DNA from: Aeromonas media
GTDB lineage: Bacteria > Pseudomonadota > Gammaproteobacteria > Enterobacterales > Aeromonadaceae
Assembly: GCF_000819985.1 (NCBI RefSeq)
Contig: NZ_CDBZ01000006.1
Span: forward strand, 920 to 48,779
Length of the DNA stretch: 47,860 nt
Direction of reading: 5' to 3'
The notes under the pieces are model-generated. The model ran no database searches and was not told the origin of the DNA. It saw nothing but the letters and a program-made list of their open reading frames with translations. The translations under genes were made by a program, and so were the position numbers. Below are positions 32,441 through 34,209 of this stretch, in pieces. Position 1 is the first letter of the stretch; every line of letters begins with the position of its first letter.

Positions 32441-34003
32441 ATGTCAGATCGAGTCATCATATTCGATACCACCTTGCGTGATGGCGAGCAGGCGCTGTCG
32501 GCCAGCTTGACGGTCAAGGAGAAGCTGCAGATTGCCCAGGCGCTGGAACGACTCGGTGTCGACATCATGGAAGTGGGCTTCCCTGTCTCCTCCCCCGGTG
32601 ATTTTCAATCGGTGCAGACCATAGCCCGCCACATCAAGAACAGCCGTGTCTGCGCCCTGGCCCGCGCCCTGCCCAAAGACATCGATGCCGCCGGCGAAGC
32701 CTTGCGGGTCGCCGAAGCCTTCCGTATCCACACCTTTATCTCCACCTCCTCCATCCACGTCGAAAGCAAACTGAAGAAGAGTTTCGAAGACGTGCTGGAG
32801 ATGGGGGTCGGCGCCATCAAGCACGCCCTGCGCTACACAGACGACGTGGAGTTCTCCTGCGAGGATGCGGGCCGCACACCGATTGATAATCTCTGCCGCA
32901 TGGTGGAGGCCGCCATCAAGGCGGGGGCCCGCACCATCAACATCCCGGATACCGTGGGCTACACGGTGCCGACCGAATTCTCCGGCATCATCCAGACCCT
33001 GTTCAACCGAGTGCCGAACATAGACCAGGCCATCATCTCGGTGCACTGCCACGACGATCTGGGCCTCTCGGTGGCCAACTCCATCGGTGCCGTACAGATG
33101 GGGGCGCGTCAGATAGAGTGCACCATCAACGGCATCGGCGAGCGGGCGGGCAACTGCTCCCTGGAAGAGGTGGCGATGATCCTGAAAACCCGCGCCGACC
33201 TGCTCGGGGTGCACACCAACATCCGCCACAACGAGATCCATCGCACCAGCACGCTCGTCAGTCAGCTGTGCAACATGCCGGTGCAGCCGAACAAGGCCAT
33301 CGTCGGGGCCAACGCCTTCTCCCACAGCTCCGGCATCCATCAGGACGGCGTGCTCAAGGCCAAGAACACCTACGAAATCATCACCCCCGAGAGCATCGGC
33401 CTCACCCAGAACAACCTCAACATGACCTCCCGCTCCGGCCGCCACGTGATCAAGCACCGCATGGAGAGCATGGGCTACGCCGAGAGCAGCTACGATCTCG
33501 ACCACCTCTACGGCAAATTCCTGGTCCTGGCCGACAAGAAGGGGCAGGTGTTCGATTACGATCTCGAGGCGCTGGCCTTCTTCAGCCAAATCCACGAGGA
33601 GCCCGAGCACTTCAAGCTGGAGTACCTCGGGGTGCAGAGCGGCAGCTCTGTGCTGGCCACCGCCTCGGTCAAGCTCAAGGTGGGTCAGGATCTGATCTGC
33701 GAAGCGGCCACCGGCAACGGCCCTGTGGATGCTGTCTACCAGTGCATCAACCGCATCACCGGCTACGAGATCCGCATCGACAAGTACGAGCTCAAGGGCA
33801 AGGGGGAAGGCAAGAACGCCCTCGGCCAGGTCGACATAGTCGCCGAATACAAGGGTCGCAAATTCCATGGCATGGGGCTGGCAACCGACATCATAGAGTC
33901 CTCGGCCCAGGCCCTGGTCCATGTCATCAACAGCATCTGGCGTGCCGATCAGGTCGCCGAGCAGATGGAACGCAATAACAACATCAAATCGGAAACCGTC
34001 TGA
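32441..34003 (+). CDS. leuA: 2-isopropylmalate synthase
   Basis: This 520-residue enzyme condenses acetyl-CoA with 2-ketoisovalerate, the first committed step of leucine synthesis. The metal/substrate motif [20 protein letters not shown] [12 protein letters not shown] and [13 protein letters not shown] belong to the catalytic TIM barrel. The C-terminal allosteric domain for leucine feedback begins about residue 390. It is first in leuABCD behind the attenuator. Its 3' end is the first copy of a degenerate tandem repeat that extends into leuB. Confidence 0.95.
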
Positions 34004-34209
34004 ACAGTGAGTGATCGGTTCACTGAGCAGATGGGACATAAAAACAACACCAAATCGGAAACCGTCTGAGCAGCGAGCGGCTCGCTGAACGGATGGAATG
34101 CAATCACAACATCAGGACGGAGACAGTCTGAACAGGCATAGGCTCGCAGTACCGGGTCACTGGGCAGATGGAACTCAAAACAACATCAGGACGGAGAGAG
34201 TATGAGCAG
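33959..34209 (+). repeat. Four degenerate tandem copies of the leuA-leuB junction
   Basis: A unit of about 49 nt occurs at 33959-34007 (the end of leuA), 34025-34073, 34087-34135 and 34162-34209 (the leuB start). Shared elements are (G)CAGATGG, AACAACA(T/C)C, (A/G)CGGA and GT(C/A)TGA(A/G)CAG. Repeat starts are 66, 62 and 75 nt apart. The third spacer also resembles the first codons of leuB. Each spacer can fold: CAGTGA/TCACTG (34005-34025), AGCGAG/CTCGCT (34072-34086) and CAGT/ACTG with inner AC/GT pairs. The last copy supplies the leuB ribosome site and ATG. Confidence 0.85.

What the first reader, a model, noticed from the sequence alone, without database searches (positions are those of the whole stretch)
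33959..34209. leuA-leuB junction expanded by four degenerate tandem copies, each spacer able to fold
A unit spanning the last codons of leuA and the start of leuB occurs four times. leuA ends in GTC-TGA-ACAG in copy 1, while copy 4 reads GTATGAGCAG, where ATGAGC is the leuB start. The simplest explanation is an ancestral junction with stop and start overlapping as ATGA, then duplication and decay. The copies differ by many substitutions, so the array is old and has not been removed. Each of the three spacers can form a hairpin, and hairpins differ in sequence but not in position, which hints at selection for structure between a feedback-regulated enzyme and the rest of the operon.
Basis: partly seen in the sequence, partly recalled or inferred. 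Interest (0 to 1): 0.75.

Follow-up and report, generated by a model that had tools for sequence, protein, structure and literature searches.

The report
Expandable repeat array between leuA and leuB
In many Aeromonas species the spot where two leucine-making genes once overlapped has been copied in tandem, only the last copied start signal is still intact, and similar copies sit at other gene joints in related genomes, which may show how bacteria lose or keep the link between neighbouring genes.

Summary
The repeat is real: the leuA/leuB junction occurs four times at window 33947-34225 (spacings 66, 62, 74). In 37 Aeromonas genomes the junction is an ATGA overlap (8), a 2-nt gap (9) or an array of 2-5 junctions (20; gaps 56-265 nt in the 19 complete ones). 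Close relatives differ in copy number. Upstream copies lack ATG (first 20 of 20, internal 23 of 23); the last keeps ATGA (20 of 20). Best reading: repeated in-register duplication of an overlapping junction, silenced decoy starts, leuB uncoupled from leuA. Joints can form hairpins (34 unique, mean z -2.54), but covariation does not exceed shuffles: selection for structure is not shown. A wider class exists: three array-bearing relatives show 17.5-40.5 gene-boundary tandem duplications per Mb; A. hydrophila-like G015 and two other genera 2.5-7.6. Of those joining genes in different frames, 21 of 31 keep the frame that permits a chimeric mini-cistron (chance 1/3, p 9e-5). The leu arrays do not (15 of 43 units, lengths).

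The parts
32259..32393 (+). leu operon leader with leucine-rich leader peptide (32270-32335) and attenuator-like hairpin; context, not part of the array
   Evidence: Rfam Leu_leader E 1.2e-4, 34.6 bits, below the gathering score of 50; reading
32441..34003 (+). leuA, 2-isopropylmalate synthase; its last 57 nt are part of junction copy 1
   Evidence: NF002084/TIGR00973 above cut-off
33947..34012 (+). junction copy 1: end of leuA with its real stop (34001-34003) and silenced decoy start CTG (34000-34002)
   Evidence: the repeat finder; decoy start table
34013..34074 (+). junction copy 2; decoy CTG 34066-34068, stop TGA 34067-34069
   Evidence: 83% identity to copy 1
34075..34152 (+). junction copy 3, including a copy of the start of leuB; decoy CTG 34128-34130, stop TGA 34129-34131
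   Evidence: 75% identity to copy 1 (family D1); 85% between copies 3 and 4 over 46 nt (family D2)
34153..34225 (+). junction copy 4, the working one: ribosome site around 34189-34200, ATGA at 34202-34205
   Evidence: last copy keeps ATG in 20 of 20 arrays
33996..34034 (+). hairpin J1 over the leuA stop and decoy start: 7-bp outer stem, 2x2 purine loop, inner stem
   Evidence: -18.7 kcal/mol, z -3.92; inverted repeat I2
34062..34096 (+). hairpin J2, same layout
   Evidence: -21.5 kcal/mol, z -5.14; inverted repeat I1
34124..34171 (+). hairpin J3, weaker, longer loop
   Evidence: -15.0 kcal/mol, z -1.23
34202..35287 (+). leuB, 3-isopropylmalate dehydrogenase
   Evidence: TIGR00169 above cut-off

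Best explanation
The spacer is a small tandem array made by repeated in-register duplication of an overlapping leuA/leuB junction (ATGA). Shown: the overlap in relatives, the array itself, copy-number change between relatives, and absence of the start codon in every copy but the last. Inferred: the silenced copies would otherwise be decoy starts. With a 56-265-nt gap, leuB is no longer started by ribosomes that finish leuA and relies on its own ribosome site in the last copy. The hairpins over each decoy start-stop probably also discourage restarting there and may cap the leuA part of the mRNA. The array arose by a mutation process that looks common at gene boundaries in this branch of Aeromonas and is tolerated there, and it can expand and contract because its units share one register.
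For: Unexpanded ATGA in 8 and a 2-nt gap in 9 of 37 Aeromonas genomes; of 28 outgroup loci tried, 24 were parsed, with gaps of -1 to +2. Arrays in 20 of 37. Start codon absent in first 20 of 20 and internal 23 of 23 copies, present in last 20 of 20; predicted ribosome-site pairing averages -2.56 kcal/mol in first and -6.55 in last copies. Copy number differs among G000, G023 and A. rivipollensis; the A. veronii spacer reads as a mosaic of A. allosaccharophila units 2, 3 and 4. The array label needs at least 6 changes on the leu gene tree, 4 forced by well-supported branches. In one study coupling is little or none beyond 30-40 nt, though another reports effects over 50-350 nt; structure just after the upstream stop lowers coupling (PMC12548453, section 6, and passages). 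Gene-boundary duplications: 46 in 1592.5 kb of three array-bearing genomes, 5 in 1192.5 kb of three genomes without arrays, two of which are other genera. In the leu arrays unit length keeps frame in 15 of 43 units, near the 14.3 expected (counted by hand from the lengths), so frame is not held.
Against: The leuB ribosome site is not stronger in array species (-6.55 against -6.69 kcal/mol), although uncoupling might predict it. The first-copy tail of A. rivuli matches the window group although A. molluscorum, its sister, has plain ATGA: one old origin with losses, or exchange between species, is as possible as repeated gain. The segmentation script required a stop codon at each junction, so kept stops in internal copies are no evidence, and degenerate joints (A. 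caviae group) may be missed. In the window, units 3 and 4 stay open from CTG to the next stop and unit 2 has a GTG 3 nt after the leuA stop, so weak restarts cannot be excluded. The promoter scan found no site in the array, but it found none upstream of leuA either, so it is weak. Array genomes are related and not independent. No expression data were available.
Confidence: 0.68

Rival explanations
1. Selected hairpin ladder: the hairpins act as an mRNA stability or processing element that sets the level of leuA against leuBCD, and copy number tunes it.
For: 34 unique junction hairpins, mean z -2.54, 25 of 34 below -1.5; cognate arms pair better than permuted arms (31 unique pairs, p 0.01; 8 of 9 species in the expected direction). 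19 of 19 array spacers have negative z. Other gene-boundary duplications were not more structured than ordinary gene ends (mean z -0.51, n 53, against -0.85, n 100), so hairpins are not a by-product of duplication as such; the stretches folded differ in length and choice, so this comparison is informal. Precedent: malE-malF, and stable hairpins at the 3' end of the stabilised part in 26 of 34 E. coli operons whose first gene is stabilised (PMC5927463, passages).
Against: Covariation does not exceed column shuffles (100 of 500 as high; 3 pairs with double change, shuffled mean 3.2). The A. veronii group lacks the inner stem. The A. caviae group has a largely unrelated spacer with z -0.9 to -1.5. 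Copy number varies. Mutation templated by imperfect palindromes could improve pairing without selection (recalled, not tested).
Confidence: 0.3
2. Pure neutral decay: duplications at a gene boundary do no harm and drift; the hairpins are chance.
For: Gene-boundary duplications are frequent in the three array-bearing genomes sampled and lie at boundaries (46 of 72 hits, expected about 0.2), as expected if those inside genes are purged. No covariation above shuffles. Frame is kept at chance level in the leu arrays (lengths).
Against: The start codon is absent in 43 of 43 first and internal copies while internal ribosome sites often persist, though shared descent explains part of this. Hairpins look more stable than at other duplications (informal comparison).
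Confidence: 0.3
3. Ribosome relay: each unit is a tiny cistron that passes ribosomes from leuA to leuB.
For: At other duplicated junctions of related genomes an uninterrupted chimeric mini-ORF is present in 19 of 31. In the window, units 2-4 are open, unit 2 with a GTG 3 nt after the leuA stop.
Against: Across the leu arrays the frame is open back to the previous stop in 32 of 43 units, about what a rough estimate gives by chance; ATG, GTG or TTG near the previous stop is missing in most units; unit lengths keep frame in only 15 of 43.
Confidence: 0.12

Closest known systems
Translationally coupled overlapping gene pairs (ATGA, -4 spacing)
   Same: The unexpanded junction of 8 Aeromonas genomes is exactly this motif, described as the commonest spacing in prokaryotes (PMC12548453, passages).
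   Different: Here the motif is duplicated, the upstream copies have lost their start, and the gap exceeds the usual coupling range.
Intercistronic stabilising hairpins (malE-malF type; REP/BIME named from memory)
   Same: Stable hairpins without a U-tract directly after the first gene of an operon.
   Different: Built from the neighbouring genes' own sequence and matched at one place in the window's genome, not a dispersed palindromic repeat family; protection of mRNA is untested.
Bacterial minisatellites / VNTR loci
   Same: Head-to-tail units with species-variable copy number and in-register gain and loss.
   Different: Unit is a gene junction with stop and start; copies are 61-85% alike and were not reported by Tandem Repeats Finder at score 30.

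Membership tests
Overlapping coupled gene pair | start and stop codons within -4 to +3 nt | tested here: not met
   leuA stop to leuB start is 198 nt in the window; met in 17 of 37 Aeromonas genomes
Overlapping coupled gene pair | downstream translation depends on upstream translation | not testable with these tools
   needs expression data
Minisatellite / VNTR | tandem units above chance | tested here: met
   (0 shuffled hits)
Minisatellite / VNTR | copy number varies between related genomes | tested here: met
   2-5 junctions among 20 array-bearing genomes; variation within a species not tested
Stabilising intercistronic hairpin | hairpin more stable than shuffled sequence | tested here: met
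   J1 z -3.92, J2 z -5.14; J3 only -1.23
Stabilising intercistronic hairpin | compensatory changes between relatives | tested here: inconclusive
   score 0.103 against shuffled 0.094 (100 of 500 as high); permuted arms p 0.01
Stabilising intercistronic hairpin | protects upstream mRNA | not testable with these tools
   needs RNA half-life data
Intrinsic terminator | stem followed by U-tract | tested here: not met
   0 found in 32200-35500; that scan also missed the leader attenuator, so the sequence was read directly: no T-run after J1-J3
REP/BIME | dispersed in many copies | tested here: not met
   one match at E <= 0.001 in the window's genome

The most novel reading that the evidence does not exclude
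A branch of Aeromonas undergoes a wave of roughly 60-130-bp tandem duplications that survive at gene junctions. Where two gene products need to be made together (candidates: trpE-trpG, ilvI-ilvH, artQ-artM, livM-livG, also rnc-era), survivors are mostly those whose length leaves a coupled chimeric mini-cistron: the downstream gene's start fused to the upstream gene's end, overlapping both neighbours. Where coupling is not needed, as at leuA-leuB, decoy starts are erased, frame is released, and the junction grows into a hairpin array. Junction duplication would then be a natural experiment on which gene pairs need translational coupling, and a birth route for small ORFs.
Probability: 0.4. Interest if true: 0.8.

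Novelty: new variant of a known kind. Interest (0 to 1): 0.58.

Why it matters
It gives a many-species series of how an overlapping gene pair may become uncoupled: overlap, duplication, silencing of the decoy start, array growth and contraction. The comparison with other duplicated junctions, many of which keep a mini-ORF between the genes, could make it possible to read from genomes which neighbouring genes really need translational coupling. It also warns annotators that short chimeric ORFs at gene joints may be duplication products.

Tried and rejected
Stronger leuB ribosome site in array species: not seen (-6.55 against -6.69 kcal/mol). Mini-ORF relay in the leu array: 32 of 43 units open back to the previous stop, which is close to a rough chance estimate; few start codons. 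Mini-ORFs from the internal ATG of each unit: not conserved. Covariation: not above shuffles. Hairpins as a general by-product of junction duplication: not seen. Internal promoter: none found, by a scan that also found none upstream of leuA. Rfam match to the array: none up to E 1; the matches lie at the leader and one on the minus strand of leuB. Assembly artefact: unlikely, because separate assemblies including the single-contig G023, G010 and G036 carry arrays. The count chose among candidates with a score that favoured frame-kept ones, so it is not used; fixes the frames without choosing a start codon, and repeats that, one row per duplication, with twelve settings (21 of 30 at the settings; p from 4.4e-5 to 0.024).

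Literature: searches were seen as listings (several capped, e.g. 12 of 48 and 10 of 269 papers); no listed title or abstract start described this array or junction duplications with chimeric cistrons. Most subscription journals are outside that library. One search of ten was left unused.

Full report
What is there. The leuA-leuB spacer of the window is a tandem array. The repeat finder shows copies of the junction at 33947, 34013, 34075 and, by the second family, 34180 (spacing 66, 62, 74). Copies 1 and 2 share the leuA-like tail; copies 3 and 4 share a different tail and also the first ~24 nt of leuB. The unit is therefore the end of leuA plus the start of leuB. leuA, leuB, leuC and leuD are confirmed by NCBIfam models. 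A leucine leader lies upstream of leuA (Rfam Leu_leader, 34.6 bits, below its gathering score). The array has one match in the window's genome, itself. The nearest relative at the leu locus is A. rivipollensis (95% over 2227 columns).

Relatives. leuB was found in 37 of 37 Aeromonas genomes. Eight have an ATGA overlap (A. enteropelogenes, molluscorum, australiensis, fluvialis, lacus, cavernicola, G035, G016). Nine have a 2-nt gap (G015, dhakensis, salmonicida, piscicola, bestiarum, popoffii, diversa, simiae, RU39B). Twenty have arrays, with gaps of 56-265 nt in the 19 whose junction is complete; the twentieth, G005, is broken at a contig end inside the array. Of 28 outgroup loci given to the script, 24 were parsed and have gaps of -1 to +2; of the other 4, one reads as a 2-nt gap by eye and in three leuA was not located; 23 further outgroup loci were not examined.

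Units and dynamics. Segmentation gives 2 junctions in A. veronii, an uncultured relative and the A. caviae group (caviae, taiwanensis, sanarellii, whose single long unit of 107-115 nt may hide a degenerate joint), 3 in eight genomes (G023, G010, G036, lusitana, eucrenophila, finlandensis, G034, sobria), 4 in the window, rivipollensis, tecta, allosaccharophila and rivuli, 5 in aquatica, and at least 4 in the broken A. bivalvium contig. Near relatives differ. G023 has 3. A. rivipollensis has an extra long unit that differs from its neighbour at three positions. The window has an extra short unit with a leuA-type tail. The A. veronii spacer combines pieces of A. allosaccharophila units 2, 3 and 4. 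On a tree of leuA and leuB coding sequence (39 rows: 36 Aeromonas, 3 outgroups) the array label needs at least 6 changes, 4 forced by starred branches. Because A. rivuli and the window group share the same first-copy tail, one old origin with losses, or exchange between species, is as possible as repeated gain.

Silenced starts. At the position of the ATG, the first copy has CTG in 20 of 20 arrays. Internal copies have CTG in 22 of 23 and CTA in 1. The last copy has ATG in 20 of 20. Predicted pairing with the anti-Shine-Dalgarno (letters recalled) is -2.56 kcal/mol on average in first copies, -5.0 in internal and -6.55 in last copies. In the first copy CTG is the only single change of ATG that leaves the leuA stop and valine and is not GTG or TTG (reasoning from the code). 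The leuB site itself is no stronger in array species (-6.55 against -6.69). The array gaps of 56-265 nt exceed the 30-40 nt over which coupling fades in several studies, though one study reports a gradual decrease over 50-350 nt (PMC12548453, section 6). Hence leuB is probably uncoupled from leuA; this step is inferred.

Hairpins. Many joints can fold into a 7-bp outer stem over stop and decoy start, a 2x2 purine loop and an inner stem. Of 44 joints, 38 were delimited and 6 dropped; 34 are unique, mean z -2.54, 25 of 34 below -1.5. Cognate arms pair better than permuted ones (31 unique pairs, -12.58 against -11.82 kcal/mol, p 0.01; 8 of 9 species). All 19 complete array spacers have negative z, from -0.83 to -4.29. 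Against this, on 30 of the 32 unique arm pairs the covariation score is 0.103, with 100 of 500 shuffles as high, and pairs with change on both sides are 3 against 3.2 expected. Pairing is far above slid registers (77% against 27-37%), but that control favours a structure derived from these sequences. The A. veronii group has no inner stem. So the hairpins are predictions at a fixed place; selection on them is unproven.

A wider class. Sampling 20-kb stretches from six genomes, degenerate tandem duplications with offsets of 40-120 bp were counted with one method. At gene boundaries lay: G023 23 of 35 hits in 797.5 kb, G036 7 of 10 in 400 kb, G010 16 of 27 in 395 kb, A. hydrophila-like G015 3 of 6 in 392.5 kb, and two other genera 1 of 19 and 1 of 3 in 400 kb each. 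The expected boundary fraction is about 0.2, and shuffled sequence gave none. With offsets of 30-500 bp allowed, 44 of 57 boundary duplications of G023, G036 and G010 have units of 60-130 bp. Gene boundaries come from a simple ORF caller, not from annotation. These duplications are not more structured than ordinary gene ends.

Frame keeping. Where long open frames lie on both sides in different frames, 21 of 31 duplications in the four Aeromonas samples have a length that lets the duplicated start of the downstream gene read into the duplicated end of the upstream gene (chance 1/3, p 9.4e-5; 0.035 against 1/2); 10 of 31 do not. Nineteen of 31 hold an uninterrupted chimeric mini-ORF ending at the true junction; in 13 of these 19 the start-stop spacing is -8 to +2, in 6 the overlap is longer. 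Four same-frame cases were set aside; the two other genera had no such case in 400 kb each. One row per duplication and other thresholds give p from 4.4e-5 to 0.024. Related genomes share some junctions, so the cases are not fully independent. Examples with named genes: rnc-era, artQ-artM, livM-livG and an isochorismate synthase / dihydroxybenzoyl-adenylate synthase pair, which is not an obvious complex, trpE-trpG and ilvI-ilvH. At ilvI-ilvH the offset is 80 nt in G023 and 92 nt in G015, and the window is unduplicated. The leu arrays are different: unit length keeps frame in 15 of 43 units, near the 14.3 expected (hand count), and the decoy starts are gone.

Reading. leuA-leuB looks like an uncoupled, still changing member of a class of junction duplications. 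Its origin and silenced decoys are well supported, uncoupling is inferred, and a function for the hairpins remains open. Preprint PMC11188072 (passages) reports that about 13% of its putative intergenic small ORFs co-directed with the downstream gene end within 10 nt of that gene's start; the passages seen did not discuss junction duplication as their source.

Noticed in passing
G023 L126:16157-16303; L123:15194-15318; L122:3483-3582; L137:6473-6598; G036 L219:8827-8934; G010 L247:1242-1325: Tandem duplications at the trpE-trpG, ilvI-ilvH, rnc-era, artQ-artM, livM-livG and siderophore-gene joints, each with a chimeric mini-ORF between the genes.
   Followed up: partly
G036 L220:12534-12632 and G010 L240:8552-8656: Apparently the same gene pair (similar protein ends; no NCBIfam match for the G010 pair at E 1e-45) is duplicated in two species with different unit lengths (95 and 101 nt), both keeping frame, with -4 spacing at each end.
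   Followed up: no
window 32259-32393: Leucine-rich leader peptide and attenuator-like hairpin upstream of leuA; the simple terminator scan missed it, perhaps because the T-run can pair in an extended stem.
   Followed up: partly
window 27301-27640, minus strand: ilvI-ilvH junction is unduplicated here (TGATG overlap) while G023 and G015 carry duplications.
   Followed up: yes
L046 end and L011 start: The A. bivalvium contig ends inside the array, and the leuB contig of G005, perhaps the same species, begins inside it; possibly a longer array of near-identical units.
   Followed up: no
L010, L014, L018-L020, L023: In the hydrophila/salmonicida group the LeuA tail is 4 residues longer (V[AT]KTDKINTESV) and has a 2-nt gap to leuB instead of an array.
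   Followed up: no
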